From the NCBI GenBank assembly GCA_035653615.1, contig DASRBN010000044.1, positions 1 through 64,000 on the forward strand: a stretch of 64,000 nt of DNA. The letters run 5' to 3'. The translations under genes were made by a program, and so were the position numbers. Under the pieces are notes generated by a model. It ran no database searches, was not told the origin of the DNA, and worked only from the letters and a program-made list of their open reading frames with translations. Below are positions 3,066 to 23,466 of this stretch, in pieces (within the stretch, counting starts at the first letter, position 1; the number at the start of each line of letters is the position of its first letter). The DNA comes from Ktedonobacteraceae bacterium. GTDB lineage: Bacteria; Chloroflexota; Ktedonobacteria; Ktedonobacterales; Ktedonobacteraceae.

Positions 3066-3371
3066 TTATACAATAAAAAGGATGTCGTCCTTCGGCGGGG
3101 GATCACCGATGGTTTCTACTTTCGCGACACAGTTCGCGCAGAGGGGATAAAATCGCACGCTGTCCTGCGTATCGACGAGGTATTCATCTAACTTCGCTTG
3201 CAAGAGGATCATGTCTCTCCTGCTGAGAAAGCATTCAAATAACGAGTACTGCGTCCATTTGCCAAATCCGGTCAGAATCTGGTGTATCTTGGTGCGCCTG
3301 CGATCATCGGGAATATCATAGGCCACCACGTAGCACATCGTCTGCATGCTGCTGCGACTCCTGCTAGCCAT
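3066..3371 (-). CDS. cas2: CRISPR-associated endoribonuclease-fold protein Cas2
   Basis: 101 aa. It forms the bridging dimer of the Cas1-Cas2 spacer-integration complex. The N-terminal beta strand followed by YDIPDD (Asp19) is the Cas2 signature, followed by RRRTKIHQIL and the usual ferredoxin-like continuation; length is normal for Cas2. The ATG at 3371 is preceded by AGGAGAGG, and the gene starts 9 bp after cas1 ends, so it is the last gene of a cas4-cas1-cas2 unit that points toward the array leader. An internal Met9 is a possible alternative start. Identification is firm. Confidence 0.95.
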   Translation of the reverse strand: MASRSRSSMQTMCYVVAYDIPDDRRRTKIHQILTGFGKWTQYSLFECFLSRRDMILLQAKLDEYLVDTQDSVRFYPLCANCVAKVETIGDPPPKDDILFIV

Positions 3372-3380
3372 TGTCCTCTC

Positions 3381-4478
3381 CTATCGAATGCGCAGCGGTG
3401 GATACTCATCAATCTCGCCGGTCAGGTATTTCCCTAAGAGCCTGGCCTGGAGTTCAATGCAGCGCCGGTAGGTGGTTCTGTAGCCGAATAATGGATGCTG
3501 CACTTCTTCGTTCAGGCGTTCTTCCAATTTCGTGAAGAATACTTTGCGCTTCTCCTGCTTGAGATTGTATGCGCCTAACTCTACGACAAAATCATTCGGA
3601 CTCATCATGCGATGATTCAGCATGTTCAGCACCATCGAATCCACGATAACGGGCCGGAATTCTTCCAGAATATCGAGTGCCAGGGCTGGACGACCGTAAA
3701 AGGAACTGTGCAGGTAGCCCACATAGTGGTCGAACCCTACCAGCTGTACCGCGCTGGCAACTTTGCTGGTCAGCAGTGAGTAGCCAAAGCTGAGCAGCGC
3801 GTTCACCGGGTCGGTCGGCGGTCGCTTGACACGCCCTGGAAATGGCCATTGCCTGGGGTCGGAGAACAATTTGCCGAAACAGCTAAAGTAGGCCGCGCTG
3901 CCCGCACCCTCCATCCCCAGAATCGCTTCCAGGGGCGTACCTTCTATCCGGTTATCTCCCGTCGCCAATCGCTGTGGGACGTGTACCGCGTCTAATCGCA
4001 GCGCTGCCAGTTGCTGTAGCAGTGAGGTGATCTGTTCAATGGCCTGCCTCATCTCGGCATCGGATTGACGGCGCTGGTACCGTTGCAACATGGTGCGTTG
4101 ATTCATGAGCTTACCCATCACGAAGCGCCGCGCCAGTTCGCAGCGTTTGCCCATATCCAGGTGCGCGCGATACTGTGCCATGCGCAGGATGGCATTCCTG
4201 GAGAACGCGGGCGAGAGGCGACCCTTGAACTGTCCAAAATGGCTCATGAAGGTGATCTCGATGTCGCGCTCGAGCAACAGGCGCAGGGCCGAGGCCGTCA
4301 TTGTTACCTCGCCCATCACCACCACTTCGTCTATTTTGATCAGCGGCACGCGCTCCTTGCGAGCCGGGACGGCCGCCGCGCCATCCTTCGCGCGCCTTTC
4401 GGGAATTTGCACCAGCAGGCTGTCTTCGCCGTCGCGCCGTACCAGCGCATAGTCTTCGGTCAGATACAATGTTGGCAT
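3381..4478 (-). CDS. cas1: CRISPR integrase Cas1
   Basis: 365 aa from the ATG at 4478, chosen because AAAGGAG lies 7 nt upstream; the open frame extends to 4568 but has no ribosome site there. Cas1 integrates spacers into the leader-proximal repeat with Cas2. The N-terminal beta domain (about 1-85) is followed by the helical catalytic domain with the metal-ligand set Glu190 (in GMEGAGSA), His257 (in GYLHSSFYG) and Asp269/Glu272 (in LALDILEEFRP). It has no fused RT or Cas6 domain, unlike many RT-Cas1 proteins, but a separate RT gene lies two genes upstream. It starts 23 bp after cas4 and is followed by cas2. Confidence 0.97.
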   Translation of the reverse strand: MPTLYLTEDYALVRRDGEDSLLVQIPERRAKDGAAAVPARKERVPLIKIDEVVVMGEVTMTASALRLLLERDIEITFMSHFGQFKGRLSPAFSRNAILRMAQYRAHLDMGKRCELARRFVMGKLMNQRTMLQRYQRRQSDAEMRQAIEQITSLLQQLAALRLDAVHVPQRLATGDNRIEGTPLEAILGMEGAGSAAYFSCFGKLFSDPRQWPFPGRVKRPPTDPVNALLSFGYSLLTSKVASAVQLVGFDHYVGYLHSSFYGRPALALDILEEFRPVIVDSMVLNMLNHRMMSPNDFVVELGAYNLKQEKRKVFFTKLEERLNEEVQHPLFGYRTTYRRCIELQARLLGKYLTGEIDEYPPLRIR

Positions 4479-4501
4479 GTCTATGCTCCTTTCAACCAGA
4501 C

Positions 4502-5119
4502 CTACGTAAGCTTTTTCGCTTGCAGCATTCGCACTTCCTCCGGCATACAGAGCGGCAGCAGGCTGCATTTGGGGCAGCGTGCCGCCAGTTGACCTGTAAG
4601 CGGCGGTGGCGGAGTCTCAAGCGCCGCTATTTTCAATGCCTGGACGATGGCGGCCCGCGTCCTGGCGCGCAGTTCCTGTGTGAAACGTACCTGCACGCGC
4701 CTGCGCGAGCCAACGTAGTAGATGTAGCCATAGGGGATGAGCGGCTGGCCGGGACGACGCTCTTCCAGACACAATGCTTGCGCGCACAGTTGAATGGAAT
4801 GATTGAGCCAGTCGCCCTGCTGCCCGTGCTTGTATTCCACCGGTACAGGCACGCCTGCCCGCTCCTCGATCACATCGGCAAAACCCGTCAGGCGCAACGC
4901 CTCGGAATACAGGTAGAGGCGCGTGATCTGCATCTCCCCCTCCGCCGTCGTATGTGTCCCTTCCTGGTGGACACGCTCGTGTTCCAGCGTCCCCTCCAGC
5001 ACGTATTCATTGACCAGCATCTCCCCCTGCACGAACTGGTAGTAAAACTTGCGCGGGCAGTATTCCAGCGCGTTGAGCGAGGAGATGGGGATCATCTCCG
5101 TCTGTGGTATAGTTGCCAT
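4502..5119 (-). CDS. cas4: CRISPR-associated exonuclease Cas4
   Basis: 205 aa RecB-family nuclease that trims prespacers and helps choose PAM and orientation during adaptation. Seen in the sequence: Cys21 near the N-terminus and a C-terminal CPKC...C cluster (Cys182, Cys185, Cys191) for the 4Fe-4S centre; GFADVIEE (Asp82) and VEYKHG (Glu95, Lys97) for the PD-(D/E)xK core. It lies immediately upstream of cas1 in the same direction. Cas4 is unusual in many type III loci, so the adaptation module may have been shared with or taken from a type I system; that is inference. Confidence 0.95.
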   Translation of the reverse strand: MATIPQTEMIPISSLNALEYCPRKFYYQFVQGEMLVNEYVLEGTLEHERVHQEGTHTTAEGEMQITRLYLYSEALRLTGFADVIEERAGVPVPVEYKHGQQGDWLNHSIQLCAQALCLEERRPGQPLIPYGYIYYVGSRRRVQVRFTQELRARTRAAIVQALKIAALETPPPPLTGQLAARCPKCSLLPLCMPEEVRMLQAKKLT

Positions 5120-5330
5120 GGCTTATTGTATTTCCTCTTGATCTTTTCGGGTTTCCTAGTATACTTGTCTTGTACCGGTGTGGCAGGAGCAAGACCTTTT
5201 CTCCATCTCCCGTCTGGGATTGAAATTATACTCCATCACTTGTGAACTGTTGCCGGTAATTTGGCAGGGACGCGGGGCCGATACATCGGCCCCTCCAACC
5301 ATTACTCACAGCCTTTTCCAAACCAAACTG
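5120..5330 (-). other. Gap between RT and cas4
   Basis: 211 bp without a gene. It carries a short palindromic dispersed-repeat piece at 5272-5295 (GGGCCGATACATCGGCCC core) and, at 5212-5226, TGGGATTGAAAT, which resembles the end of the CRISPR repeat over about 11 bases; I regard that as weak. I looked for a group II intron domain V hairpin (GAGC...GUUC type) downstream of the RT stop and did not see one. Confidence 0.5.
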
Positions 5331-6842
5331 CTACCCTTTCAAAATGCTCTTTTGCCGGTACGCGCGTAGTTGAATGCCGTTGGTGGTCGCGAAAACCCTC
5401 CGATTGTTTCCGGCGCGCTGCCAGTAACGATTGAGCAACCAGTCGCGCCCCTTGCCTGGGTGCCGCCGACCCGCCCAATCGAGGAGCCGCTGCTCCAGCA
5501 GATCATCGTAGCGGTTCAGCGTTGCCGCCGGAACGATACCGTTGTAGTAGTTCGCCCAGCCCATAATCATGGGATTGAGTTCCTCAATCACCTGCGCCTG
5601 CGGAGCCTGCTGCAACTGCCGTAACTTTTGCTCGATGGCCGCCAGGTGCCGATTGCTCGCCTCCTGGCCGGGGGCCACGATGGTCTTCAATCCCGTTGGG
5701 CGCAGCGGCGACGTGAGCCGCTGCATAAGGGATGTGAATCCAGACATGCTTGCCTGCGCCGGTGCCCGTCCCTGCCCGCTCCTGCCTGGAGAAGGTTGCT
5801 CTCTCGACTCCTGATGAATGTGAAAGCCCAGGAAATCGAAGCCGACCTGGCCTGAATAGGGCATCAGCGTATGCGCGATGCGTGTTTTGCCGGGATGCAG
5901 GTGCAATCCCATCGTTGCCAGCCACTGCCGGACTCGTTTGGCCGCCTGTTGCAGTTCCTTGAGGTCGGTATGCAAAATCACGAAGTCGTCGGCATAGCGT
6001 ATCAGCAACGGCCGCTCCTTTGCCTGATCTCTGGCGGTACTGCCAGCTGCTATGGCCTCCATTCCATGCAGCGCCACATTCATCAATAAAGGCGAAAGCA
6101 CGCCTCCCTGGGCAATGCCCGTTTCGACGGCATAGTAGGTGTGGTCGTCGATCACCCCCGCCTTGAGCCAGGCCTGAATGGTCTCGCGCAGCGCAGGATA
6201 GGTTTGCAGCTTGTCCAGCACCATCGCCTGGTTGACATGATCAAATGCCCCCTCGATATCAGCATCGAACACATAGGTAGGCTGGCGTTCAATCGCGACC
6301 AGAATGGCCGCGATCGCATCATGCCCACTGCGACCGGGACGAAAACCGAAGCTATGTGGCTCAAACTGCGCCTCCCACTCCGGTTCAAGCGCCAGTTTCA
6401 CCAGCGCCTGCTTGCAGCGGTCGATCATCGGCAGGATGGCCACCGGGCGCTGTTCCGTCGTACCCGGCTTGGGAATCCATACTCGCCGCACCGGTCGCGG
6501 CACCTGTTGTCGCCAGTTCCGCGGATGAATCGTCGCCGCCATCGCCAGCCGCTCCTCGGCACTCAGCGATTTAACGCCATCGACGCCCGGCGTATGCCTG
6601 CCCGAATTCTCCTCCGCCGCGCGGCGCACCGCCAGTAGCCGGGCCGCCTCGGACTCCATCAATCGCTGCTGCAAGGAATGTACCGCCTGCTTATCCCCGC
6701 GCTGGCATGCCTGTGAAATCTGCATCTGCATGCGCACCACCTGCTGCTCCAACGATTTCCACGGCACGCCATTGCGTGCTGAATTCGCCGGAGCAGCCGC
6801 CTGTTGCACGCGCGCGTTTCCCGATAGTTTCTTATCTTTCAT
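5331..6842 (-). CDS. Group II intron-like reverse transcriptase in a cas operon
   Basis: 503 aa. The reverse transcriptase domain (about 85-345) has an N-terminal RVT_N-like helical part, FDADIEGAFD (Asp193 and Asp195), QGGVLSPLL (245-253) and the catalytic YADD at 283-286. A maturase-like X/thumb region follows with LNPMIMGWANYY at 422-433. There is no HNH endonuclease domain and no Cas1 or Cas6 fusion. It sits in the same direction as cas4-cas1-cas2, 211 bp upstream, so it most likely supplies cDNA for spacer acquisition from RNA, as known for RT-associated type III systems. It could instead be the coding part of a mobile group II intron, but no intron RNA ends are visible. The ATG at 6842 directly abuts AGGAG, which is unusually close. 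Confidence 0.9.
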   Translation of the reverse strand: MKDKKLSGNARVQQAAAPANSARNGVPWKSLEQQVVRMQMQISQACQRGDKQAVHSLQQRLMESEAARLLAVRRAAEENSGRHTPGVDGVKSLSAEERLAMAATIHPRNWRQQVPRPVRRVWIPKPGTTEQRPVAILPMIDRCKQALVKLALEPEWEAQFEPHSFGFRPGRSGHDAIAAILVAIERQPTYVFDADIEGAFDHVNQAMVLDKLQTYPALRETIQAWLKAGVIDDHTYYAVETGIAQGGVLSPLLMNVALHGMEAIAAGSTARDQAKERPLLIRYADDFVILHTDLKELQQAAKRVRQWLATMGLHLHPGKTRIAHTLMPYSGQVGFDFLGFHIHQESREQPSPGRSGQGRAPAQASMSGFTSLMQRLTSPLRPTGLKTIVAPGQEASNRHLAAIEQKLRQLQQAPQAQVIEELNPMIMGWANYYNGIVPAATLNRYDDLLEQRLLDWAGRRHPGKGRDWLLNRYWQRAGNNRRVFATTNGIQLRAYRQKSILKG

Positions 6843-7165: not shown

Positions 7166-8560
7166 TCACACATTGCACACAAAACACTGCTTGTTCCTCA
7201 TCCGCACGCTCTCTTTATCCTCGTAGATGCTCATCGCGCCGTTGTTTTCGTAGACCAGGATGGGTACATGCCTGTATACATCCGTGTACTGGTTGATCAA
7301 TACATCCACCAGCATCGTCGCCAGGTACGTGTTCAGCGTTTTAACGGCAGGCTCCTTGACATTCATGCCCGTCACATAGCCTCGTTTCACCAGCTCCTCG
7401 CGGATCATCTGATCAGGATGCTTCTCACTCGCGACCTTCGTCGGGTTGATACGGTGCAGGCATTGCAAGCACAGCCTGTCGCCCACCCTGGCCGTAATCA
7501 CTTCCCCACTCATATCCTCGATCTTGCCATCCTTCACCGTGATGTTAACCCCTACAGAGAGCAGCGGCACAAAGTATTCGATGGAGAGTTCCTGCGCGCG
7601 CAACCGGCTGGAATGGTTATCAGTCGCCACAATGATCCAATCGGAGAGCGCCAGCACGCTCTCGATCTCCTGGTCATGCACATCCTTCCTGTAGGCCTGT
7701 ACGGTGGCCTTGGGATTAATGCGGGTGAGATGCCGCTTGACCACGTCCACCTTGGGCAGCTTCCTCTGAGCATCCTCGTAGTACGCGCCCACGACGCGGT
7801 TCAGGTTCGACATCTCCAGCACATCGGGGTCAATGAGATTGATCTCGTGAAAGCCCATATGAATGAGATGTTCGGCGATGATGGAACCTAATCCGCCGAC
7901 GCCCACAATTGAGATGACCTGGTCATGCATGATCGTTCGCATCACGTCCAGGCCCAGCACCGCCGCGCCGCGATTGAAAAAGCCCTCGGTAGCCGTCACC
8001 GCCGTCTTTTCGTATTGATCATCCGCGTATTCGCGAAAGTCGGCGCTCGCGATACGCTCCCGACTCGTCTGCGTCTTCAGTTGCGCGGTTTTGGGAATGA
8101 TGGAGCCACCGTTGAGCGTCCAGACGCGCGCAGAGTAGCGGCTCTGCGAGAAAACGATGCTGGCGTAGTGAATACCGGCAAATGTCTCGTGCAAAAACTG
8201 GAAGAAGGTCTGCTCGTCGCCATCATCTGTGGCCGAGAACGCGACCCGCCCCTGCGAGAAGGGGTGTGTATGCACATCGATAATCGTATCGACATCGTAG
8301 CGCCTGGTCATCTCGGCCAGCGCCGCGTGGACGAAATCCTTTTTGATGCGCAAGAAGGCCACATTCTGCGTATTGTAATCCGCCTGCGAGGGATATAGCT
8401 GATCGATAACGTTGATGATCATACAGCCATTGACCCGGCGCGTCTTCCCCAGCAAAATCGCAAAATGCTCCTTCGAAAGATCCTCCAGTAGCGTCTCTCG
8501 CAACTGCTCAAGATCGCCATTTTTAAACTTGATCTGATAACGCGATTGTGTAGTATGCAT
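7166..8560 (-). CDS. JAB deubiquitinase-like / E1 (ThiF-like) fusion protein
   Basis: 464 aa from the ATG at 8560 (AAAGGA 7 nt upstream; the longer open frame to 8686 reads through a dispersed repeat). The N-terminal JAB/MPN metalloprotease domain (about 20-160) has Glu31, then H97-T-H99-P, Ser109 and Asp112, the zinc-ligand pattern with a slightly long loop between His and Ser. The C-terminal E1-like adenylation domain (about 205-464) has GVGGLGS at 220-226, LIDPDVLEMSNLNR with Arg255, VATDN and two zinc-knuckle pairs, CLQC (364-367) and CFVC (459-462). Members of this kind activate a ubiquitin-like protein and cleave its C-terminus or conjugates. No Cys lies between the two knuckle pairs, where a catalytic E1 Cys would be expected. 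It follows the E2-like gene after a repeat-filled 631-bp gap. Confidence 0.9.
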   Translation of the reverse strand: MHTTQSRYQIKFKNGDLEQLRETLLEDLSKEHFAILLGKTRRVNGCMIINVIDQLYPSQADYNTQNVAFLRIKKDFVHAALAEMTRRYDVDTIIDVHTHPFSQGRVAFSATDDGDEQTFFQFLHETFAGIHYASIVFSQSRYSARVWTLNGGSIIPKTAQLKTQTSRERIASADFREYADDQYEKTAVTATEGFFNRGAAVLGLDVMRTIMHDQVISIVGVGGLGSIIAEHLIHMGFHEINLIDPDVLEMSNLNRVVGAYYEDAQRKLPKVDVVKRHLTRINPKATVQAYRKDVHDQEIESVLALSDWIIVATDNHSSRLRAQELSIEYFVPLLSVGVNITVKDGKIEDMSGEVITARVGDRLCLQCLHRINPTKVASEKHPDQMIREELVKRGYVTGMNVKEPAVKTLNTYLATMLVDVLINQYTDVYRHVPILVYENNGAMSIYEDKESVRMRNKQCFVCNV

Positions 8561-9191
8561 GAATGGTTCCTTTCGTAATATGGATAGGTTTTTTGCACCG
8601 CCCCTGGGCATGTCATTCTGAGCGTAGCGAAGAATCCCCCGGCTTTTTCGCCCCCCACTCTCGCCCGGTCTGCTTCCGAGAAACACCTGATTGGGTTTTT
8701 GGGAAGGTGAGGGTGAGGCTCTTACGACCGTTCATGGTGGAGTCGCTCTTCCTGGCACACAGCTGTGTACACGCCAGGGGCCAGGTTATGGGCATGCACA
8801 CATTGGTATGGTAATCCCGCCAGGGGGCCGATCAATCGGCGATGCCCGCGATAAATCGGGGCCTACGGCATCCCGCCGCGGCGAAGCCGCGTAGGGGCCG
8901 GGCAGTCCTGTCTGGGGGACAGGCATACCGTACCCATCGCCGATTTATCGGCCTCCACGTCCATCCCAGAGTATTTTGTCAAAAACCTTCATCGGGCCTG
9001 GCGCAATTACCCCGTTATTTTGTTCAAGCCCATCATCACGCCCTCTGATTGAGCCTGCTCGAATTCACATGCCTATCCTCACCATGGGGCACGATGATGC
9101 CTTTCAACAAACGATGGTGGTCAACCACGCCGGGCCGATGAATCGGCGCTGGGCGCGATCAATCGGCCCCTACGACCCTCCCCATACATCC
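8561..9191. repeat. 631-bp gap filled with dispersed repeats
   Basis: No gene is supported here. It holds one type-A repeat (8610-8640, GTCATTCTGAGCG then GCGAAGAATCC), type-B repeats at 8823-8868 and 9130-9174, and a half copy at 8938-8960. Plus-strand open frames across it are complements of genes or repeat read-through. The gap may separate the JAB-E1 gene from its upstream partners transcriptionally; no clear promoter was seen. Confidence 0.75.
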
Positions 9192-9875
9192 CTATTCCTC
9201 CGTTCCCGACAACACTTCGCTAATCAGCGTAAAGTATGTCCAGAGGCTATCGCCCTTGCGCCAATCTCCGGGATGTATGACCGGGGCCGGCTGCCATCCC
9301 CCGGGGTTGATGTAGACGCAGTACCACTTCCATCCCTGCGTCAAGGGGTCGCTGCAGGCCTCGTGATAGGCTTGCTGGTACAGGTGCCCGTTGACGGAGA
9401 GCGGTATATCTTGCCTGAGGTAGAAACCGACCGGCGGCAGCACCGGATATTCGGTCGGGAAGACAACCATCAGATCGGTCGTTTGAGCGATGTTATGCCA
9501 GATGGGCGGCAACACATAATTGTTGGCTATCATCCAATCGGCATTTTCCTCGTCAAACGACACGCCACGCTTGAACAAGTTCTCCGCGATATCGTAAACC
9601 TGTTCAGTGATGATCTGTTTGGAAAGCCAGGTTCGCACTCCCCCATAGGTGACGCCCTTCGTGCGGTCAGGAATCGTGGTAATCTTGACCGGATTGCCAT
9701 GCTTGTCGTACAGTTCCGCCGGCGTATAGGTATGGCTCGGCTGCACAGGACGGAAAGCCATTCCCTGCTGGATGACCGGGCGCCGGCCAACTCCAGGATT
9801 CAATTGCTGGATCAAATTCTGCCCGGTAATGCCCCCGGGTGGAACCTGAATCCTTCGACCATTAATGATCGCCAT
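9192..9875 (-). CDS. E2-like (prokaryotic UBC-fold) protein with possible N-terminal ubiquitin-like part
   Basis: 227 aa; ATG at 9875 with AAGGAG 9 nt upstream. Residues 96-222 match the pattern of bacterial E2-like proteins found beside JAB-E1 genes: LPPIWHNIA, then DLMVVFPTEYPVLPPVGFYL (the UBC beta-strands with PxxPP), then GWKWYC (Cys186), GGW and a C-terminal helix GDSLWTYFTLISEVL. Cys186 is the only reasonable candidate thiolester Cys besides Cys174. Residues 1-79 (INGRRIQVPPGG, TGQNLIQQL, then beta-like segments) could be a ubiquitin-like fold and end in Tyr-Gly-Gly (77-79). No separate ubiquitin-like gene is visible. It lies between the NYN gene (39 bp upstream) and the JAB-E1 gene. 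Confidence 0.75.
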   Translation of the reverse strand: MAIINGRRIQVPPGGITGQNLIQQLNPGVGRRPVIQQGMAFRPVQPSHTYTPAELYDKHGNPVKITTIPDRTKGVTYGGVRTWLSKQIITEQVYDIAENLFKRGVSFDEENADWMIANNYVLPPIWHNIAQTTDLMVVFPTEYPVLPPVGFYLRQDIPLSVNGHLYQQAYHEACSDPLTQGWKWYCVYINPGGWQPAPVIHPGDWRKGDSLWTYFTLISEVLSGTEE

Positions 9876-9914
9876 GAGTAATTTCTCCTTCTAGCTTCTC
9901 GATTGAGAGCGATC

Positions 9915-10580
9915 TTATAACGTCACATCATCGCTGCTGTCCGCGACAGCCACACCCGTCTCCTCGCCTTTCAGATCGACGGTGATCTTTGCCCCTGGTT
10001 CGTCCGCGTCCAGGTCAAGCGCCTGCGATTCGATGAGTTTTTGAAACTGATCGTCCTCGAGCCTGTCCGCGCTTGCATTGCCATCCAGGGCCGCCAGGTA
10101 GCCGTCATAGTACACGGCCAGGTTGATAAAGCCCGAAGACTTGATCAGGATATCCGTTCCAGCATTCTCCAGAAACGTCGCCACCTCGACTCGCACACCG
10201 GCCCGCCTGACCTCCTGAATCAGCGGGATAAAATCGGAATCGCCGGTCGCCAGCACAATAATGTCCGGCTTGACCTGGTACACCACGCGCTGCACGTCCA
10301 TCGCGATCTCAACGTCGAAGTTGCATTTGTACGTACCGCCCGCGATCGTACCCATCTTGGTAGTGACGATGTAGCCGGCCCGCCATAGCTCCTCAATCTC
10401 CGCGTCCAATCGATGCTCGTTGCGCGGATTGATGGGGACGTAGCAATACGCCTCGACGAGAAACCGCTGCTCGCCGACATAGTGCAGCAGGTCGGCGTAG
10501 TCCATGCGATACCTTTTCTCCCTGGCCGCGCGATTGACGTTGGCGTAATCCAGGAAGAAGACAACCTTTTCCTTTTCCAT
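9915..10580 (-). CDS. NYN (LabA/PIN-like) domain ribonuclease
   Basis: 221 aa. The NYN domain is a PIN-like metal-dependent RNase fold. Acidic residues are at the expected sites: FFLDYANVN (Asp11, Asn14), FDVEIAMD (Asp89, Asp95) and ATGDSDF (Asp114, Asp116). The C-terminal 60 residues are acidic and low-complexity. ATG at 10580 was chosen over the GTG at 10589 because AGGAGG lies directly against the GTG but about 10 nt from the ATG. It is the first gene of a minus-strand unit with the E2-like and JAB-E1 genes, divergent from a STAND ATPase, which suggests an RNA-cleaving output for that unit (inference). Confidence 0.88.
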   Translation of the reverse strand: MEKEKVVFFLDYANVNRAAREKRYRMDYADLLHYVGEQRFLVEAYCYVPINPRNEHRLDAEIEELWRAGYIVTTKMGTIAGGTYKCNFDVEIAMDVQRVVYQVKPDIIVLATGDSDFIPLIQEVRRAGVRVEVATFLENAGTDILIKSSGFINLAVYYDGYLAALDGNASADRLEDDQFQKLIESQALDLDADEPGAKITVDLKGEETGVAVADSSDDVTL

Positions 10581-10925
10581 AATGTTCACTCCTCCTTTAG
10601 GAATGTGACTTACCTGGCCACTTCAGTTCGACTGTTAGTGATTGCCCAGAAGCGAGGCCGGGATTCTTCGCTGCACTCAGAATGACATGACCTGTGCATG
10701 TCATTCTGAGTGCAGCGAAGAATCCCTCGTGCCATTCTCAGACCGGCAGACACTCCTCGTTCTGGCAAATTTCCAGTTCGACTGTACTTGAAGTGTTTCT
10801 CTCCAGGTGTTAAACTACGTAGCGGAAGGTTCAGTTTTCCCTTCCACTACGAGCATATCCGTAAAGGTTGTCATTGAGAATGACATCTTTTGTCATTAGA
10901 TTTTGATAGCAACGGGTGAAAAACT
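10581..10925. promoter_or_regulatory. Divergent regulatory region with paired dyads and a hairpin
   Basis: 345 bp between the NYN gene (left) and the STAND gene (right). The 12-mer CAGTTCGACTGT, itself a dyad (CAGT-TCG-ACTG), occurs at 10624-10635 and again at 10774-10785. Between them is a type-A repeat pair with 29-bp perfect arms (10661-10689 and 10697-10725) and a 7-nt loop. Close to the STAND start is the palindrome GTCATTGAGAATGAC (10870-10884) with a third half-site GTCATT at 10892-10897. These are candidate operators for the divergent units, possibly bound by the STAND protein's own HTH; binding is inference. Confidence 0.5.
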
Positions 10926-12356
10926 ATGACATATGCAGGTCGCCCGCGCCGTGAGGAAGAGAGGCCGGATAGCGCATTTGGCAAGGCGCTCAAACACTAC
11001 TTACAGCGTATCGAGGATTTCACACAGACCGATTTAGCCAGGGAGACCGGCATTCCCGAAAGAACGCTCTCCCTTATGGTCAAGGGGGAACGCGCAAGCG
11101 GCACGACACTGCGGCGCGATCTGCGCGACATCATCAAGGTCCTGTACAAAAAGAATGCGCTTCATTCGCTTGCAGAGGCCAACCAGCTGGTGACCAGCAT
11201 TCCAATGATCAAAGAACTGGACGAGCGCGATTCCGATGACGCGGCAGTAATCAAACTGTTCAGTACATCCCTGACCGAAAACGAACGACTTGCTCGCATT
11301 GAGGAGCGCATCCGGCACGTGCTGCGCGATAACGCGGTTGTCGATCACACACAGTTGTTCGGCGTCGACACGCTGCTAAAGAAATTAAAAGATGACCTCT
11401 TCGCGCCGCAGGGTGCATGGGTGATCAGCCTCTGTGGCGAGGGCGGACTCGGCAAAACGGCCCTCACCTATGAAGCGGTCGCTCGTTATGCAGCCTCAGC
11501 AGGCTTTACCAGGGTTGGCTGGGTTTCGGCCAAAACATTCCAATTGCTACCCGATGGCATACTCTTGAGAGATGGCAGCGCCGAACTGCATTGGGGCAAT
11601 ATACTCAAAAAATTAGCGGACCAGCTCGGTATTCGCCTTGGTGATAACTCGAGCGGGTGGATCAAGGATTTTCAGCGCGGAATACGCTCGCTTCCGCCAG
11701 GAGAACGCTGCCTGCTCGTTGTGGATAACCTCGAAACGGTTCAGGATATCGATGAGGTCATCCAGTACCTGGGCCGCAACACGCTCGTCAATCCGCATAA
11801 GATACTCCTCACGACCCGCCATGCTCTGTTAGGAAAAGTGCAGTACCTGGTCGAACGGCACGTCAAAGCCCTTGAACTTGAACCGGCCTTACGCTTTATC
11901 CGTACTCTCGGTGGCGATGTTGTCGAACAGGCAAGCGATGACGAACTGCGGCCCATCGTAGATGTTACCGAGGGCAACCCCCTCTTAATCAAGCTCTTCG
12001 TCACGCGCCTGCTCGTGAGCCACCAGCCGCTCGATTTTGTCGTGGAAGAGTTACAGGCGGTTAATCAGCGCCTCGGCCAGAACATCATCGACTACCTCTA
12101 CGCGGAATCGCTCTCGATGCTGCAACAACGCTGCGGCAAAGAGGCCGCGCGTCGTCTCCTCAACGCCTTTTGCCCACTTGGCGCCGGAGATAGCGTGACC
12201 TACGGGGCGCTGCGCACCTACAGCGACATCGCGGACGACGAGGTGTTTCACAATACGCTCAAGGTTGCTTGCGACCTGTCATTAATTCGCAGTTTGAATC
12301 TCAATGCTCGTTTTTCCATTCATAGCCTGTTATGGAAATTTGTGTGTGAATACTGA
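10926..12356 (+). CDS. HTH - NB-ARC STAND ATPase
   Basis: 476 aa. Residues about 15-75 form a Cro/C1-type HTH (TDLARETGIPERTLSLMVKG). An NB-ARC/AP-ATPase module follows: Walker A GEGGLGKT at 171-178, Walker B LLVVDN at 263-268, a sensor ILLTTRH and VTEGNPLLIKL, the GLPL-like motif. A winged-helix-like tail follows. STAND proteins are oligomerising switches used in regulation and in phage defence. Sensor repeats are normally fused C-terminally; here they are absent, but a TPR protein begins 8 bp downstream, so the two probably work as a split STAND sensor. It is divergent from the NYN/E2/JAB-E1 genes. Confidence 0.88.
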   Translation: MTYAGRPRREEERPDSAFGKALKHYLQRIEDFTQTDLARETGIPERTLSLMVKGERASGTTLRRDLRDIIKVLYKKNALHSLAEANQLVTSIPMIKELDERDSDDAAVIKLFSTSLTENERLARIEERIRHVLRDNAVVDHTQLFGVDTLLKKLKDDLFAPQGAWVISLCGEGGLGKTALTYEAVARYAASAGFTRVGWVSAKTFQLLPDGILLRDGSAELHWGNILKKLADQLGIRLGDNSSGWIKDFQRGIRSLPPGERCLLVVDNLETVQDIDEVIQYLGRNTLVNPHKILLTTRHALLGKVQYLVERHVKALELEPALRFIRTLGGDVVEQASDDELRPIVDVTEGNPLLIKLFVTRLLVSHQPLDFVVEELQAVNQRLGQNIIDYLYAESLSMLQQRCGKEAARRLLNAFCPLGAGDSVTYGALRTYSDIADDEVFHNTLKVACDLSLIRSLNLNARFSIHSLLWKFVCEY

Positions 12357-12364
12357 GAAAATTC

Positions 12365-13873
12365 ATGCAATCAATAGACGACACCGCTATCGAACAAAAA
12401 ATACAAAACATCCGCGCCACGAAAGCGGATTTTCGCCAGGCGGATGACAGGCGTAACGCCTTTGAAAGAGTATTGCGCGATTACTATGAACGTCTTCGCA
12501 TGGCCCAATCTCCTTCCCAGGAAGACATCATCCAATCGCTCCATGTCCTCTACCGGGCATTGAACGCGCCGGAACTGGTTGATCAGCAGTTGCTCATCGA
12601 CTTCATCGCGGTCGTTATTCGTTTTGTGGAAAACGCCGGTGTGGGCTACGAATTCAGCAAAGGCTTCATAGACAAGGCCATTCAGGTCTATCGAAAAGCA
12701 GGCTTTTCGCCCGTCGAACTCTACCAGGCGAAGGCCGACCTGCTGCGCCTCAATCAACTCGAAAGCGCCGAGCGCGAGCAGGCGCTTCTGGAAGCCAGGC
12801 GCTACGCTGAAGTTTCAGGCAACGCCGAAATGCTGCTGCGCGTACTCATCTCATGCGCCGTGTACTACACCGAAGTGAGCCAGTACCAGAAGGCCCTTAC
12901 GGCCTGCCAGGAAAGCGAGCAACTGATCGAGCGCCATAGCCACCTGCAAAAGTACCGGCCCAAATTGCTGACCCTCTTTGGCATGAACTACACGCCACTC
13001 TTCAAATACCAGATCGCCAAAGACTGCCTGATGCAGGCAAAAACATTGCTCGATGCTGAAGAAAACCGGCAGGATGACGGTGAAAACTATGAAATCTGGG
13101 TCAGTTCGATGGATACGATCTATCACTACCTGGGCCGTATCTACGCAGCGGAAGGCGACCTGCAAGCAGCCATGTATCACTATGTCGAAGGGCATCGCTA
13201 CCAGCACATGTTTGCTCAGGAGCCTCGCTCGCGCCTCGCCTTCTACCACCTGCGCATAGGCGAACTGCTCACTTCAGCCTCGCTACTGGAGCAGGCTCGC
13301 GACCACCTGCTACTGAGCCAGGAAATGTTCGACGCCATCAAATTCTCCAGTTCAGGGCGCCTGCAAGTCAGCGCCGCCTGGGCCGCGCTTTACAGCAAGG
13401 AAGGAGATTACGTGCGGGCGCGAGAATATATCCTCGACGCCAGAAAAGAGGCCCGCAACAAGCAGTTTTCCCGCGGCGAACTCTGGTGCCTGGTCAAACT
13501 CTTCTGGCTGGAACTGGGTCATTTCCACCTGTATCGTGCCATCGTCGCTGCTATCCAGGCGCTCGGAACCTGGCGTCACGGAGAACTGCGGCGCAACGAA
13601 ACCCTCAGAATGCTTGGTCACTACTTCGTACAGGTCGTCTCCGCGCCTATCAAACTGCTGAGCCGTAAGCCCCATACCGTGATGGGCGCCGGAACGCTCA
13701 ACGCCAGATTGCAGGCGTGCATTTGCCCCCTGCACCAATCCTGTGATCCCCAAAAGAGATTCTTCGCTCCGCTCAGAATGACATGCTGGCTGTGTCATTC
13801 TGAGCGCAGTGAAGAATCCCGCTGGCCTGTCATTCTGAACGAAGCAAAGAATCCCGCTGGCCTGTCATTCTGA
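12365..13873 (+). CDS. TPR-repeat protein, probable partner of the STAND ATPase
   Basis: 502 aa as read. The protein is helical throughout, with TPR-like units through about residues 60-430 (for example HYLGRIYAAEGDLQAAMYHYVEG and AWAALYSKEGDYVRAREYILDARKEA). It starts 8 bp after the STAND gene and is surely co-transcribed. It probably supplies the sensing superhelix that STAND proteins usually carry in the same chain. About the last 45 residues (from roughly codon 460) are encoded by dispersed type-A repeats (HSERSEES and ILNEAKNP are translated repeat), so the natural C-terminus was probably replaced by repeat insertion. Confidence 0.8.
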   Translation: MQSIDDTAIEQKIQNIRATKADFRQADDRRNAFERVLRDYYERLRMAQSPSQEDIIQSLHVLYRALNAPELVDQQLLIDFIAVVIRFVENAGVGYEFSKGFIDKAIQVYRKAGFSPVELYQAKADLLRLNQLESAEREQALLEARRYAEVSGNAEMLLRVLISCAVYYTEVSQYQKALTACQESEQLIERHSHLQKYRPKLLTLFGMNYTPLFKYQIAKDCLMQAKTLLDAEENRQDDGENYEIWVSSMDTIYHYLGRIYAAEGDLQAAMYHYVEGHRYQHMFAQEPRSRLAFYHLRIGELLTSASLLEQARDHLLLSQEMFDAIKFSSSGRLQVSAAWAALYSKEGDYVRAREYILDARKEARNKQFSRGELWCLVKLFWLELGHFHLYRAIVAAIQALGTWRHGELRRNETLRMLGHYFVQVVSAPIKLLSRKPHTVMGAGTLNARLQACICPLHQSCDPQKRFFAPLRMTCWLCHSERSEESRWPVILNEAKNPAGLSF

Positions 13874-14002: not shown

Positions 14003-14386
14003 TTAAGAGTAGCGCCTCTCCCTCGCCCGCTCGCGAATCACCTGCAGATCAAGCAACTCCGCGACCTCGTAGGTCGTGACCGCCCCGGCAGCCGGGCGCA
14101 AGCGTATCAATGCCGGGAAATGTCCCATGCGTCCATGCAGTTCCGCCAGCAAAACGAAGGCGGCGGGCGCGTATCCAGGGGGATTGATGAGCAACTGGCG
14201 CGTCTGCCACTCTTCCGATGAGAGGCCAGCCGCGTTTACCAGCTGCGCGATTTGTGGTTCCAGGGCCTTCGCCTGGTCGATCTGTACCGGTATCGTGCGA
14301 ACATCCTCTACAGGCATGCCGGCCAGCGCCTCAATGCGCGCTCGCTGCTCGGTCGTGAAAGGATGCGAAAAGTTGATGACAAGCAT
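14003..14386 (-). CDS. csx15: CRISPR-associated protein Csx15, candidate ring nuclease
   Basis: 127 aa. The opening MLVINFSHPFTTEQ, the middle LSSEEWQTRQLLINPPG, ALLAELHGR-like LLAELHGRMGHFPALIRLRP and the ending EVAELLDLQVIRERARERRY match my recollection of the Csx15 family, small Rossmann-like proteins found only in CRISPR loci. Recent work links Csx15 to cyclic oligoadenylate degradation; I hold that link with moderate certainty. The gene has its own upstream region (14387-14519) with a shared palindrome, and is transcribed in the same direction as the CARF-HTH gene just upstream of it. Confidence 0.8.
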   Translation of the reverse strand: MLVINFSHPFTTEQRARIEALAGMPVEDVRTIPVQIDQAKALEPQIAQLVNAAGLSSEEWQTRQLLINPPGYAPAAFVLLAELHGRMGHFPALIRLRPAAGAVTTYEVAELLDLQVIRERARERRYS

Positions 14387-14519
14387 AGAAATACTCCTTC
14401 AAATAGGCAAGAATGTGATCTCCCCGAGTATATCCCATAACCTTTCAGAATAGATGAGAAAAACTTCTGAAAAATATCAGAACATTTCTGATGTATTTAG
14501 CTCCCAGACAGGATATACT
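14387..14519 (-). promoter_or_regulatory. csx15 promoter with TCAGAA/TTCTGA operator-like sites
   Basis: On the minus strand TATACT (14432-14427) is a likely -10; no good -35 is seen, which suggests activator dependence. Four hexamer half-sites lie upstream: TCAGAA at 14445-14450, TTCTGA at 14465-14470, TCAGAA at 14477-14482 and TTCTGA at 14486-14491. The last two make a 15-bp palindrome TCAGAA-CAT-TTCTGA centred about 64 bp upstream of the predicted start. The same TCAGAA-N3-TTCTGA occurs at 17807-17821. Confidence 0.55.
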
Positions 14520-15434
14520 CTACCCGTGGTCTGTTTCAAAGTAGCGCGAAAAATGCCGGTAGAGAAATCGCTGGTCGAATGGCCCATAGTCCGCGCTATC
14601 CCAGACCTGCGCGCAGGTATCCAGCAACTTATCTCTATGGCTATACACTGTTTTGATGGAGAGGCAGAGCCGGTCGGCGATCTCCTGGGCGGTGAGACCA
14701 TCCGCGATACCGCGCAGGACATCGAACTGGCGATGCGTAATCTTCTGGATAAAAGCCTCGCAGCGCGCGTGTTCTTGCGCGTCCATGCGCGCTTTCCCGG
14801 CCTGCTGGGCCGCCTGCGCGCTGGGAAACGACTGCGCCAGCAAGGGAACGTAATCGGCTATAGGAAAGAACGGCATCTCGATCAGGTTCACCCTTGCATC
14901 GGGCGGAACGTGCATCTGCGCGCCGTCTCTCACCTGCGCCTTGATAGCTTCGGGCGTGTAGATGTGCCAGATATGGTCGAACGAGTCGAATTTGAGCTGC
15001 GCGGCTGAAATGGCCAGCAGCGCCATCAGTCGCCGCCCACCGGTCACCGACAGGTGAATATGGCGCGGCTGCTGTTTCAGCTCCTCGAAAAAGCTGTAAA
15101 TGGTGTCGCGCGTTCCTTTAGCAGAGGTGTTGTCGGTGATATCGTCCAGCGGAATGTGATCGAGTTCCAGGATTTTCGGGCGAAAAGGGCAGTTGATGAT
15201 GCGCCCATCGATCTGATAATGGTCGTCCGGAAATTCGGCGTGCAGGCAGTCGAGAGCATGTCGCAGGCGCGGCTGAGCGGCGCGTGGGAGAATTACGATC
15301 ACCTCGCCTATCGTTACGCCATGCCGCAGTAACAGGTCGAGCGTGAACGTCACCACCTGCGGCTGCCCGCCGAGGGTGGCTACCAGCGTCTGAATATAGT
15401 TCAATTCGGGCATTCGCGGCACACTCACTTTCAT
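14520..15434 (-). CDS. CARF-like (Cas_NE0113/Csx14-like) protein with LuxR-type HTH
   Basis: 304 aa from the Met at 15434. The N-terminal Rossmann-like part (about 10-200) opens with LVATLGGQPQVVTF (17-30) and has SVTGGRRLM (128-136), the two loops typical of CARF/Csm6-like nucleotide-binding domains of the NE0113 type. Residues 232-272 are a clear LuxR/GerE-type HTH (THRQFDVLRGIADGLTAQEI, then SIKTVYSHRDKLL). The combination predicts a transcription factor that senses cyclic oligoadenylate. It is divergent from the Csx3-ATPase gene, with only 23 bp between the chosen starts. The start has no clear ribosome site; Met at 15413 is an alternative. Confidence 0.8.
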   Translation of the reverse strand: MKVSVPRMPELNYIQTLVATLGGQPQVVTFTLDLLLRHGVTIGEVIVILPRAAQPRLRHALDCLHAEFPDDHYQIDGRIINCPFRPKILELDHIPLDDITDNTSAKGTRDTIYSFFEELKQQPRHIHLSVTGGRRLMALLAISAAQLKFDSFDHIWHIYTPEAIKAQVRDGAQMHVPPDARVNLIEMPFFPIADYVPLLAQSFPSAQAAQQAGKARMDAQEHARCEAFIQKITHRQFDVLRGIADGLTAQEIADRLCLSIKTVYSHRDKLLDTCAQVWDSADYGPFDQRFLYRHFSRYFETDHG

Positions 15435-15457
15435 TATAGAGAAAGGACTATCGAACG

Positions 15458-16636
15458 ATGAACGTACTTCCGGCCATATTGATCGGCGGCCCACCCAACG
15501 CGGGCAAATCCGTCCTGTTCTACAGCCTGACGATGGCGCTGTATGAACGCGGCATCAAACATCATATCGTGCGCGCCTGCCCCGACGGCGAGGGCAACTG
15601 GTATCAAGAGATTCACCGCTCGCTCGACCCAGAAATCGCCCGGCTCATTAAGGTACAATCGAAGGCAGAATGGACGCCGGCATTCGTCGAGGGTATCTGT
15701 CGCGACCTGGAACGCCGTCACACTCCGCTCCTGGTAGATGTGGGTGGCCGCCCGCAAACATGGCAGCACTGCATCCTGCATCAATGCACGCACTCGATCT
15801 TACTCTATCGCGACCCCAATGACGAGGCTACCCACTTCTGGCAGCACTTGCTGGGTTCAACACAACTCCTGCCGCTGGCCTCCATCCATTCTACCTTACA
15901 TGGAGAAGCCGTGCTGACGGAAGAAACGCCCGTCATTCGCGGAACGCTCACCGGCTTAGAACGCGGCACGCGCGCGCAAGGGCCAGTTTTCGACGCGCTG
16001 GTGAATCGCATCGTCGCGCTCTTTGCCACCTATCCGCTCGCCGAGTTGGAGCAGGCGCAACTACAAAAGGCGCCCGCGGAACCCGTCGTTCTCCCAGACC
16101 TGCTGCACAAGTTCGATGCCGGCGCGCAGGAATGGAAGCCTACCATGCTGCGCCTTCTCGCCGGAGAACTGCCATCTAACCAGCCGCTGGCCATCTACGG
16201 CAAGGGTCCCGGCTGGCTCTACGGCACTCTGGCGTCCCAGGTAGGTGAGCAGCCATTCTACCAGTTCGATCCGCGCATCGGCTGGATGGCCCCGCCGCGA
16301 CTCGAATCCGGCACGGAGCCTGCTCCCGAAGGACTCACCTACCGGCTCTACGACGATTCCTATGGGCAGGTACTCTCCATCAAACTCAGCAACGAATACC
16401 TGGACTACCTGCAGGCAGAAGGAATGCATTTCCCGCCGATTCAGGCCGGTCGCGGACTCATTCTCAACGGCAAGATGCCGCTCTGGCTGCTGACCGCGCT
16501 CGTCCGTCTCTATCGCGTGGCGGAAGTCCCCTGGATCGCCTGCTACCAGCCACAGGTAAAGGGAGCGGTGATCGTACTTTCCCGCGGCGATGAATACGCG
16601 ATTGGTGATGTGATCCTCATGCCCATGCCGCAGTGA
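15458..16636 (+). CDS. csx3: P-loop ATPase fused to two Csx3-like segments
   Basis: 392 aa. The N-terminal P-loop domain (about 1-195) has GGPPNAGKS at 10-18 and LLVDVGGRPQ. The C-terminal part resembles Csx3, a tetrameric ring nuclease for cyclic tetra-adenylate, and does so twice: GKGPGWLYGTL (248-258) with FDPRIG (270-275), and GKMPLWLLTAL (338-348) with YQPQVKGAVIVLSRGDEYAIGDVI. Csx3-AAA fusions are known. From memory, Csx3 catalysis needs a His shortly before the DPRLG motif; no His is at that site in either segment, and the Asp is kept only in the first (Asp271; Gln364 in the second). It may bind rather than cut its ligand, or act through the ATPase. Confidence 0.82.
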   Translation: MNVLPAILIGGPPNAGKSVLFYSLTMALYERGIKHHIVRACPDGEGNWYQEIHRSLDPEIARLIKVQSKAEWTPAFVEGICRDLERRHTPLLVDVGGRPQTWQHCILHQCTHSILLYRDPNDEATHFWQHLLGSTQLLPLASIHSTLHGEAVLTEETPVIRGTLTGLERGTRAQGPVFDALVNRIVALFATYPLAELEQAQLQKAPAEPVVLPDLLHKFDAGAQEWKPTMLRLLAGELPSNQPLAIYGKGPGWLYGTLASQVGEQPFYQFDPRIGWMAPPRLESGTEPAPEGLTYRLYDDSYGQVLSIKLSNEYLDYLQAEGMHFPPIQAGRGLILNGKMPLWLLTALVRLYRVAEVPWIACYQPQVKGAVIVLSRGDEYAIGDVILMPMPQ

Positions 16637-16762
16637 AATTCCCCGCTTACCGTTGTTTCATTGTAGCACAGGTGCAAACGATCAGGCAGAGCTATAAGAT
16701 GAAGTTACTACGGGGGTATCAAAAAATGCGGGAATATTCTATAATAATCCCGAATAGAAAGG
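16637..16762 (+). promoter_or_regulatory. Candidate cas6 promoter
   Basis: TATAAT at 16740-16745 is a perfect -10 match about 18 bp before the first possible ATG of cas6. The -35 region (about 16717-16722) reads TATCAA and is poor. No TCAGAA/TTCTGA palindrome is present here, unlike in the csx15 and CARF/cas10 upstream regions. Confidence 0.4.
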
Positions 16763-17776
16763 ATGGATGTTGTGATGGAATTTGATACAATGACCACAAC
16801 GGATGGACAACCTGCTACAAAACCCGCTGTTCCAGATGCGTCTCCGGCGAAACTCTATGCGTTCCTGCTCAAGCTGCGCCCGCTGCAACCCGGCACACTG
16901 ATGCCCTTTTCTGGCGAGCTGGTGCATGCCGCGTGGCTCGACTGGCTGGCCGCTGCCGCGCCCGATGTTGCCGCCTGGCTGCACGATGGCAACAAACGGC
17001 GTCTCTTCACCTGCTCCAGCCTGCAATTTCCCATTCCCACGCAGCGCATGCGCCAGGCGGAGAGAGAGAACGTTCACCTGTCGGTAGAGCCTGATAAAAC
17101 ATACGCCATACGCATCACGCTGCTGCTGGGCGGACTCTTTCCCCTGTTCCACGAGGCGTTGATGAACTACAACCAGCGCAACACCGGCGAGCAAAAGCCA
17201 CCATTCATGCGCCTGGGCAAGCAAACGTTCCTGCTCGAAGAGGTGCTGATCGGCAACGACGATCCATCTGATTGGACCGGCTTTACCTCTTTCAGCAATT
17301 TCGCCGAAAAAGCCAGGGAGCTCAAGCTGAGCAAAGTCGAAACGCTCAAACTCGAATTTGACTCCCTGACGACGTTCAACCGCAACAACGCGAGAAACAG
17401 GGTCTACGGCGTTTATCATGCCCTGTTGCCCCTACCGGAGTACATATTCCCCATTCTCGCCCGGCGCTGGCAAGAACTCGCCCCGCCGGAGTACACTCAT
17501 CTTGTTGACGAGGCCGCCATCGAACAATACATCCAGAATAATGGGATCATCATCACCGATTACAACCTCAAGCCTCATCGCGTGACGTTCACGAATCATC
17601 CGCAGCCCGGTTTCACCGGCACCTGCACCTACGCGCTGCGAGGCCCCGACGAGCCGGCCAGCGAAGAGGCCCCTTTGACGGTGCGCCAGCAGTTGATCCT
17701 GCTCGCGCAACTGGCATTCTACACCGGCGTTGGGTACAAGACGGCGATGGGGATGGGGAGGACGAGGCCGGTGTAA
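16763..17776 (+). CDS. cas6: CRISPR pre-crRNA endoribonuclease Cas6
   Basis: 337 aa. Cas6 cuts the repeat in pre-crRNA to leave the 8-nt AUUGAAAC tag. The N-terminal region has the family pattern PFSGELVHAAWLDWL followed by RRLFTCSSLQF; the C-terminus carries the glycine-rich loop TGVGYKTAMGMGRTRPV that ends nearly all Cas6 proteins, in a double-ferredoxin (RAMP) layout. Two in-frame starts exist (16763 and 16775) with GAAAGGA upstream. It stands alone between the Csx3-ATPase gene and the CARF/cas10 operon and has its own -10-like element. Confidence 0.92.
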   Translation: MDVVMEFDTMTTTDGQPATKPAVPDASPAKLYAFLLKLRPLQPGTLMPFSGELVHAAWLDWLAAAAPDVAAWLHDGNKRRLFTCSSLQFPIPTQRMRQAERENVHLSVEPDKTYAIRITLLLGGLFPLFHEALMNYNQRNTGEQKPPFMRLGKQTFLLEEVLIGNDDPSDWTGFTSFSNFAEKARELKLSKVETLKLEFDSLTTFNRNNARNRVYGVYHALLPLPEYIFPILARRWQELAPPEYTHLVDEAAIEQYIQNNGIIITDYNLKPHRVTFTNHPQPGFTGTCTYALRGPDEPASEEAPLTVRQQLILLAQLAFYTGVGYKTAMGMGRTRPV

Positions 17777-19453: not shown

Positions 19454-19455
19454 GC

Positions 19456-23464: not shown

Positions 23465-23466
23465 CT

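What the first reader, a model, noticed from the sequence alone, without database searches (positions are those of the whole stretch)
7166..13873. Ubiquitin-like conjugation unit with an NYN nuclease and a split STAND ATPase inside a type III-D CRISPR locus
Between the adaptation genes (cas2-cas1-cas4-RT) and the signalling/effector genes (csx15 onward) lie NYN nuclease, E2-like, JAB-E1 on one strand and HTH-STAND plus TPR on the other. JAB/E1/E2 sets occur in CBASS and Bil/Bub-type operons, but I know of no described partnership of such a set with NYN, STAND and a III-D CRISPR system. A reasonable model: the STAND/TPR pair senses infection, the E1/E2/JAB set modifies or releases a target, and the NYN protein cleaves RNA. 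The island could also be an independent defence system that merely settled in the CRISPR locus.
Basis: partly seen in the sequence, partly recalled or inferred. Interest (0 to 1): 0.85.

Follow-up and report, generated by a model that had tools for sequence, protein, structure and literature searches.

The report
Ubiquitin-like tagging module beside CRISPR
Many bacteria, above all cyanobacteria, carry beside their RNA-sensing (type III) CRISPR immune genes a compact set for an RNA-cutting enzyme and a complete ubiquitin-like protein-tagging pathway, which suggests that CRISPR immunity in these organisms is controlled by a protein tag of the kind best known from animals and plants.

Summary
In detail: NYN RNase, E2 and JAB-E1 lie between adaptation and effector genes of a type III-D CRISPR locus. 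Residues 1-74 of the 'E2' are a ubiquitin-like (UBL) domain ending in KG. The unit is therefore NYN–UBL–E2–JAB/E1, a complete conjugation set.

It recurs. An E2-profile scan gave 53 loci (mostly cyanobacteria; also Pseudomonadota, Planctomycetota, Mailhella, Thermoflexus, Dictyobacter), and searches of annotated plasmids gave 3 more. Order and strand are canonical in 46 of 48 complete triads. CRISPR arrays or cas genes flank 39 of 45 loci with at least 9 kb held; six Bub operons from Chloroflexota had neither NYN nor CRISPR. All 22 evaluable Cas1 genes beside the unit are reverse-transcriptase-linked, against 2 of 16 other Cas1 loci sampled in the same genomes. Catalytic residues are invariant. 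Free UBLs end at KG or carry short variable tails, as UBL precursors do.

STAND and TPR are not part of it: none of 53 other loci has STAND, and the pair occurs elsewhere beside housekeeping genes.

Verdict: a CRISPR-associated variant of Bub-type conjugation with an E2 cysteine that Bub E2s lack. A published figure legend lists NYN, ThiS and Prok-E2 as CRISPR-linked. The target is unknown.

The parts
9915..10589 (-). NYN-family RNase, first gene of the module; catalytic acids D14, D92, D117, D119 and N17
   Evidence: Pfam NYN 6e-20; D14, N17, D92, D117, D119 identical in 48/48 module NYNs
9654..9875 (-). Ubiquitin-like (beta-grasp) domain, residues 1-74 of the UBL-E2 fusion, ending IPDRTKG; predicted JAB processing point after G74
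   Evidence: Homologous to free 65-73 aa UBL genes of cyanobacteria; AF2 beta-grasp pLDDT 85; best structural match bacterial multi-ubiquitin protein 9d59, Z 8.2; KG in all 39 free UBLs with the motif and in the fused ones
9192..9638 (-). E2 (UBC) domain, residues 80-227, candidate catalytic C186 in GWKWYC and H164
   Evidence: Prok-E2_E 3.2e-5; C186 and H164 identical in 56/56; VIA Z 10.8 to BubB, 10.5 to UBE2L6
7166..8560 (-). JAB (JAMM) peptidase fused to E1 (ThiF) adenylyltransferase
   Evidence: ThiF 1.1e-34; closest solved relative Citrobacter BubCD 1.3e-26; JAMM E31/H97/H99/S109/D112 and E1 residues G220/G222/G225/D244/R255/K270/D314 identical in 54/54
3066..6842 (-). CRISPR adaptation genes cas2, cas1, cas4 and a group-II-like reverse transcriptase, adjacent to the module
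   Evidence: Pfam/PADLOC hits; RT linkage of Cas1 is shared by all 22 evaluable module loci
1..2845 (.). CRISPR array, 39 repeat copies
14003..28186 (.). Type III-D signalling and effector genes: csx15, CARF-HTH, AAA-Csx3, cas6, CARF-PDDEXK (Card1-like), cas10, cas7, cas5/csx10, cas7, csx19, cas7
10926..13873 (+). HTH-STAND (NB-ARC) and TPR pair: judged a separate two-gene unit, not part of the module
   Evidence: STAND absent from the 53 other module loci searched; pair found in three Chloroflexota genomes without CRISPR or UBL genes

Best explanation
The island is a CRISPR-associated, Bub-related ubiquitin-like conjugation module built around an NYN RNase; STAND and TPR are neighbours, not members. 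Predicted cycle: (1) the JAB domain cuts after the conserved KG, trimming the tail of free UBLs or releasing the UBL from the UBL-E2 fusion; (2) the E1 domain adenylates the exposed glycine; (3) the UBL passes to the E2 cysteine (C186) and from there to a target; (4) JAB can remove it again. The tag most likely controls the partner RNase NYN or the type III machinery on whose RNA it works, for example NYN trimming crRNA or preparing RNA for the RT-linked Cas1. Shown by sequence: gene set, order, invariant catalytic residues, KG motif, CRISPR and RT linkage. Inferred from homology: steps 1-4. Inferred from linkage alone: that NYN or the CRISPR machinery is the target.
For: Recurrence: one E2-profile scan gives 53 loci in at least five phyla, with plasmid loci on top; 46 of 48 complete triads have the order NYN-E2-JAB/E1 on one strand. 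CRISPR linkage: 39 of 45 loci with at least 9 kb held (34 of 35 cyanobacterial, 5 of 10 others); Cas1 within 10 kb in 17 of 27 genomes against 0.25 expected from Cas1 density; six Bub operons of Chloroflexota 0/6 with NYN, arrays or cas genes. Biochemistry: NYN, JAB, E1 and E2 catalytic residues invariant; UBL fold, E2 fold, JAB-E1 homologous to BubCD. Maturation: 39 free UBLs share the KG motif, 25 end exactly there and 14 carry unrelated 2-9-residue tails; the AF2 model is disordered exactly at residues 72-75. RT tie: 22/22 evaluable Cas1 genes against 2/16 other Cas1 loci in five of the same genomes, of which 0/16 carry the module. Paper evidence for an NYN in crRNA maturation: PMC11346440.
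Against: No conjugate, target or phage phenotype has been shown. Five of ten non-cyanobacterial loci with enough sequence show no CRISPR feature, so the module can exist without CRISPR. Cyanobacterial loci are related and count as few independent events. The E1 has no invariant cysteine other than four probable zinc ligands, so a canonical E1 thioester is unlikely. The JAB spacing (8-9 residues between HTH and SxxD) is atypical.
Confidence: 0.6

Rival explanations
1. Self-contained anti-phage or stress module that only rides in CRISPR loci as in any defence island: NYN is a toxic RNase held or released by UBL conjugation, with no functional contact with CRISPR.
For: Module without CRISPR in L023, L024, L025, L029 and L072. 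In Dictyobacter it sits beside arrays without cas genes and near TIR and NB-ARC genes. Related Bub operons are stand-alone.
Against: 34 of 35 cyanobacterial loci are linked, usually with RT-cas1-cas2, array, module and cas10-cmr3 in fixed order. Linkage recurs in III-B, III-D and RT-Cas1 settings in several phyla. Sixteen other Cas1 loci in five of the same genomes have no module. A random defence-island neighbour would not be this specific.
Confidence: 0.22
2. UBL and E1 act as a ThiS/MoaD-like sulfur carrier pair for RNA or cofactor thiolation, and the E2-like protein is structural.
For: E1 closest in profile libraries to ThiF/MoeB. The cyanobacterial UBL weakly matches Pfam ThiS-like, 0.0075. 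The E1 has four invariant cysteines, as zinc-binding ThiF/MoeB do, and no other.
Against: Invariant E2 cysteine and histidine in 56/56 and an invariant JAMM centre in 54/54. Variable UBL tails and UBL-E2 fusions need a peptidase. Closest solved structures of all three parts belong to the Bub conjugation pathway.
Confidence: 0.08
3. One reading: STAND/TPR senses infection and drives the UBL/NYN set.
For: The genes are divergent neighbours in the window.
Against: The STAND gene is absent from the 53 other loci examined. The STAND+TPR pair occurs alone beside housekeeping genes elsewhere.
Confidence: 0.04

Closest known systems
Bub (bacterial ubiquitination-like) operons, operon class 6e of Iyer et al. 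2006 (PMC1779556); structures BubA 9d59/9ea8, BubB 9eae, BubCD 9ea4
   Same: JAB-E1 fusion (BubCD 1.3e-26), BubB-like E2 fold (Z 10.8), BubA-like UBL (Z 8.2); UBL-E2 fusions and stand-alone forms also described for class 6e.
   Different: Single UBL ending in KG; E2 carries an invariant Cys (56/56) where class 6e/BubB and the six control E2s have none; NYN partner; CRISPR linkage; four invariant Cys in the E1, two of which fall in a stretch where BubCD aligns without cysteine. That 6e equals Bub is my reading from the structure hits.
Type II CBASS Cap2/Cap3 and Bil systems
   Same: Anti-phage loci that use E1/E2/JAB conjugation chemistry.
   Different: No CD-NTase among the annotated neighbours; E1 and JAB in one chain; only partial E1 matches to PADLOC E1-E2 models. 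Bil features were not tested.
CRISPR-associated NYN of Bacteroides fragilis type III-B (PMC11346440)
   Same: NYN RNase encoded inside a type III CRISPR locus; crRNA 3'-end trimming was proposed there.
   Different: That paper's text has no mention of ubiquitin. In the window the NYN is the first gene of a conjugation operon.
CRISPR-linked genes reported by Altae-Tran et al. 2023 (PMC10910872, Fig. 6 legend) and PADLOC models PDLC01154 (LabA-like NYN) and PDLC01177 (CorA-like)
   Same: The legend lists CorA, NYN, ThiS and Prok-E2 as auxiliary genes and ThiF beside adaptation modules. PDLC01177 matches the small coiled-coil gene of the cyanobacterial loci at 4e-46 and PDLC01154 the second NYN at 3.6e-134. 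Probably the same loci (inference).
   Different: The main text gives no ubiquitin reading, mechanism or distribution. PADLOC gave no match for the cyanobacterial UBL or E2. The figure and supplement could not be read here.

Membership tests
Bub (operon class 6e) | JAB peptidase fused to the N-terminus of an E1 | tested here: met
   Pfam JAB+ThiF; BubCD 1.3e-26; JAMM and E1 residues 54/54
Bub (operon class 6e) | Dedicated UBL with bacterial multi-ubiquitin (BubA) fold | tested here: met
   AF2 model, VIA Z 8.2 to 9d59; 6.5 to BubA in complex with BubCD; here a single domain; class 6e has one to three
Bub (operon class 6e) | E2-like protein without the catalytic cysteine (stated for 6e in PMC1779556) | tested here: not met
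   GWxWYC with Cys in 56/56; control Bub E2s and BubB lack it. Hence filed as a Bub-related variant, not a Bub member
Bub (operon class 6e) | Protein conjugation activity | not testable with these tools
   needs biochemistry; the Bub mechanism paper (PMC12885553) is not held
Type II CBASS (Cap2/Cap3) | CD-NTase in the operon | tested here: not met
   no CD-NTase among the Pfam/PADLOC-annotated neighbours in the window
Type III CRISPR accessory module | Recurrent location within type III CRISPR loci beyond chance | tested here: met
   39/45 loci; 17 of 27 genomes with Cas1 nearby against 0.25 expected
Type III CRISPR accessory module | Functional dependence on or effect on CRISPR activity | not testable with these tools
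   no genetics available
NYN RNases | Conserved acidic/Asn metal-binding positions of the NYN fold | tested here: met
   D14, N17, D92, D117, D119 in 48/48
Type III-D CRISPR | Cas10d, Csx10 (Cas5), Csx19, Cas7 III-D | tested here: met

The most novel reading that the evidence does not exclude
A ubiquitin-like modification pathway is an integral regulator of RNA-directed CRISPR adaptation: UBL tagging of the RT-Cas1 complex or of NYN controls the conversion of RNA into new spacers. This would be an adaptive immune step in prokaryotes governed by ubiquitin-type tagging, for which I found no precedent.
Probability: 0.2. Interest if true: 0.95.

Novelty: new variant of a known kind. Interest (0 to 1): 0.8.

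Why it matters
Bacterial ubiquitin-like conjugation has been tied to CBASS, Bil and Bub defence or stress operons. A conserved, complete conjugation set (processing, E1, cysteine E2, modifier) with its own RNase inside type III CRISPR loci of many cyanobacteria would join ubiquitin-type signalling to adaptive immunity. The question is directly testable, since some hosts are cultivated, sequenced cyanobacteria. The Cys-bearing E2 next to the Cys-less Bub E2s also gives a natural comparison for how conjugation chemistry changed.

Tried and rejected
Prok-E2_B in the own genome: nothing, control silent. Phages: no E2 match. STAND/TPR as members: rejected. First view that the Dictyobacter locus lacks CRISPR was wrong: arrays lie 2.3 kb upstream of NYN. 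L052 (Hormoscilla) passed the array finder with 4 repeats, but its module is decayed and the repeat is doubtful; counted as unlinked. L038 'cas2' hit judged unreliable and outside the 9-kb set. Rfam: no known RNA family in 2800-14500, so no intron was found to explain the RT. Cas6 is absent from the module loci of the cyanobacterial III-B genomes tested although present elsewhere in most of them; compatible with NYN in crRNA maturation, but the window has both. Sequence profile of the UBL against PDB: no match; only structure comparison showed it. Foldseek alone gave no match with E below 0.001 for either model; the weight is on VIA Z-scores and on homology of JAB-E1. JAB-E1 tree: module sequences fall mainly in two well-supported clades (window group; cyanobacteria plus Planctomycetota), with Thermoflexus and Lamprobacter placed unsurely and some controls on very long branches, so a single origin was not tested firmly. 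Papers on the Bub mechanism and UBL diversity (PMC12885553, PMC12145246) and two CRISPR accessory surveys were not held.
Full report
OBSERVATION. The window holds a 39-repeat CRISPR array (1-2845), cas2-cas1-cas4-RT on the minus strand (3066-6842), the island (7166-13873) and a type III-D interference/signalling block (14003-28186) whose Cas10, Cas5/Csx10, Cas7 and Csx19 match III-D models strongly. The island contains JAB-E1 (7166-8560), an E2 gene (9192-9875) and NYN (9915-10589) on one strand, and HTH-NB-ARC plus TPR on the other.

THE MISSING MODIFIER. The first 74 residues of the E2 gene are a separate domain. In cyanobacteria the same domain is a free 65-73-residue gene placed just before E2. 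AlphaFold2 gives a beta-grasp domain (pLDDT 85-87) followed by a disordered stretch at residues 72-75 (TKGV) and then a UBC fold. The UBL model matches bacterial multi-ubiquitin (BubA-type) structures best (Z 8.2), the E2 part matches BubB best (Z 10.8), and JAB-E1 matches BubCD best by sequence (1.3e-26). The set is thus complete: modifier, E1, E2, peptidase, plus NYN.

RECURRENCE. In 400 Chloroflexota genomes close E2 relatives occur in only two, the window's and Dictyobacter vulcani. A scan of 84,980 species genomes with an E2 profile gave 53 loci: mostly cyanobacteria, with Chromatiaceae and relatives, Methylococcaceae, Rhodobacterales, Planctomycetota, Mailhella and Thermoflexus. Plasmids of Nostoc, an Aphanizomenonaceae strain and Microcystis carry it too. 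Of 48 loci with all three large genes, 46 keep NYN-E2-JAB/E1 on one strand.

LINK TO CRISPR. Annotating neighbours with the window's and plasmids' Cas proteins and a repeat finder, I count 39 of 45 loci with at least 9 kb as carrying a CRISPR array or cas gene (the script said 40; I discount the decayed L052). Cyanobacteria 34 of 35, mostly RT-cas1-cas2, array, module, cas10-cmr3. Others 5 of 10: Dictyobacter (arrays and a CARF-HTH remnant), Thiorhodospira (RT-cas2-cas1 and 47 repeats), a Chromatiaceae bacterium (cas6 directly downstream), Mailhella (RT-Cas1 fusion), Thermoflexus (csx15, cas6, III-D RAMPs). Given 0-8 Cas1 loci per genome, chance would put 0.25 of 27 loci within 10 kb of Cas1; 17 are. 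Cyanobacterial loci are related, so this is not 34 independent events; the independent support is the number of different settings and phyla. As a control, six other Prok-E2_E/JAB-E1 operons in Chloroflexota (one E2 hits BubB at 8e-7) have no NYN, array or cas gene. With so few non-cyanobacterial loci, 5/10 against 0/6 is not significant alone (Fisher p 0.09).

LINK TO REVERSE TRANSCRIPTASE. All 22 evaluable Cas1 genes beside the module have an RT adjacent or fused (21, plus the Mailhella RT-Cas1 fusion); three more lie at or near contig edges and cannot be judged. In five of the same cyanobacterial genomes, 16 other Cas1 loci have an RT adjacent or fused in only two cases and the module in none. 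The window also has an RT next to cas4-cas1-cas2.

ACTIVE SITES. NYN D14/N17/D92/D117/D119 in 48/48; JAB E31/H97/H99/S109/D112 in 54/54; E1 nucleotide-binding residues in 54/54; E2 H164 and C186 in 56/56. The six control E2s and BubB lack the cysteine, as Iyer et al. 2006 state for class 6e. The E1 has four invariant cysteines (C364, C367, C459, C462), probably zinc ligands, and no other, so direct transfer from UBL-adenylate to E2 is likely (inference).

MATURATION SIGNATURE. All 39 free UBLs share P[KDQE]xxKG; 25 stop exactly at G and 14 carry unrelated tails of 2-9 residues. In the window group, in L056 (a cyanobacterium) and in L038 (a planctomycete) the UBL is fused through KG to E2. Constant glycine plus variable tail is the usual mark of a processed UBL precursor; the JAB domain is the obvious peptidase. 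Predicted, not shown.

STAND AND TPR. The STAND gene is absent from the 53 other loci searched. STAND+TPR occurs alone beside housekeeping genes in three genomes of another Chloroflexota genus. I leave both out of the module.

HOW IT MAY WORK. JAB exposes the UBL glycine; E1 adenylates it; E2 C186 takes it; a target is tagged; JAB reverses it. The nearest candidate targets are NYN and the RNA-handling CRISPR proteins. A CRISPR-associated NYN from B. fragilis III-B is an Mn-dependent ssRNase proposed to trim crRNA (PMC11346440), and the cyanobacterial III-B module loci tested lack a local Cas6, so crRNA maturation is plausible; the RT link makes RNA-spacer acquisition about as plausible. The module can also live without CRISPR (L023, L024, L025, L029, L072), so it is a self-contained RNase/UBL unit repeatedly found in type III loci and, in cyanobacteria, kept there.

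PRIOR KNOWLEDGE. Altae-Tran et al. 2023 list NYN, ThiS, Prok-E2, CorA (auxiliary) and ThiF (adaptation-linked) in the Fig. 6 legend, with no ubiquitin discussion in the text; PADLOC has the small coiled-coil gene as 'CorA-like' and the second NYN. The loci were therefore probably seen before as unexplained CRISPR-linked genes. I found no paper in the held library that describes a CRISPR-linked ubiquitin-like pathway; subscription papers and preprints were not searchable.

VERDICT. New variant of a known kind: Bub-related conjugation, with a cysteine E2 and NYN, as an accessory of RT-bearing type III CRISPR. Anatomy and linkage are strong (about 0.9); conjugation chemistry likely (about 0.75); some functional tie to CRISPR more likely than not (about 0.6), its nature open.

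Noticed in passing
L012:5184-6152 and similar in about ten cyanobacterial loci: A second NYN protein (LabA-like, about 320 aa, PADLOC PDLC01154 at 3.6e-134) is encoded divergently just upstream of the module.
   Followed up: partly
L012:7004-7375, L013:6909-7373 and others: A small coiled-coil protein with one C-terminal hydrophobic helix lies between NYN and UBL in nearly all cyanobacterial loci (PADLOC 'CorA-like' 4e-46); it is not seen in the window group.
   Followed up: partly
L022:3599-6660 (Dictyobacter vulcani): Three CRISPR arrays (about 27 repeats) beside the module with only a degraded CARF-HTH gene and transposases; no cas genes found in the regions read.
   Followed up: partly
L025:3630-8255 and L026:13420-18291: Three genes that look like dynamin-type GTPases near the module in two purple sulfur bacteria; another defence-like neighbourhood.
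   Followed up: no
L024:11718-17805 and L029:11794-15409: CRISPR-free module loci share a downstream Sel1-repeat-like gene and an unknown protein of about 600 aa.
   Followed up: no
window 8603-8641, 10691-10729, 13785-13893: Short intergenic repeats (TGTCATTCTGAGCG...) flank the gene groups of the island; the TPR reading frame runs into them at its 3' end.
   Followed up: partly
window 5331-6842: The RT carries RVT_N and group II maturase (GIIM) domains, but no Rfam intron RNA was found around it; possibly a CRISPR-adapted group-II-like RT beside cas4.
   Followed up: partly
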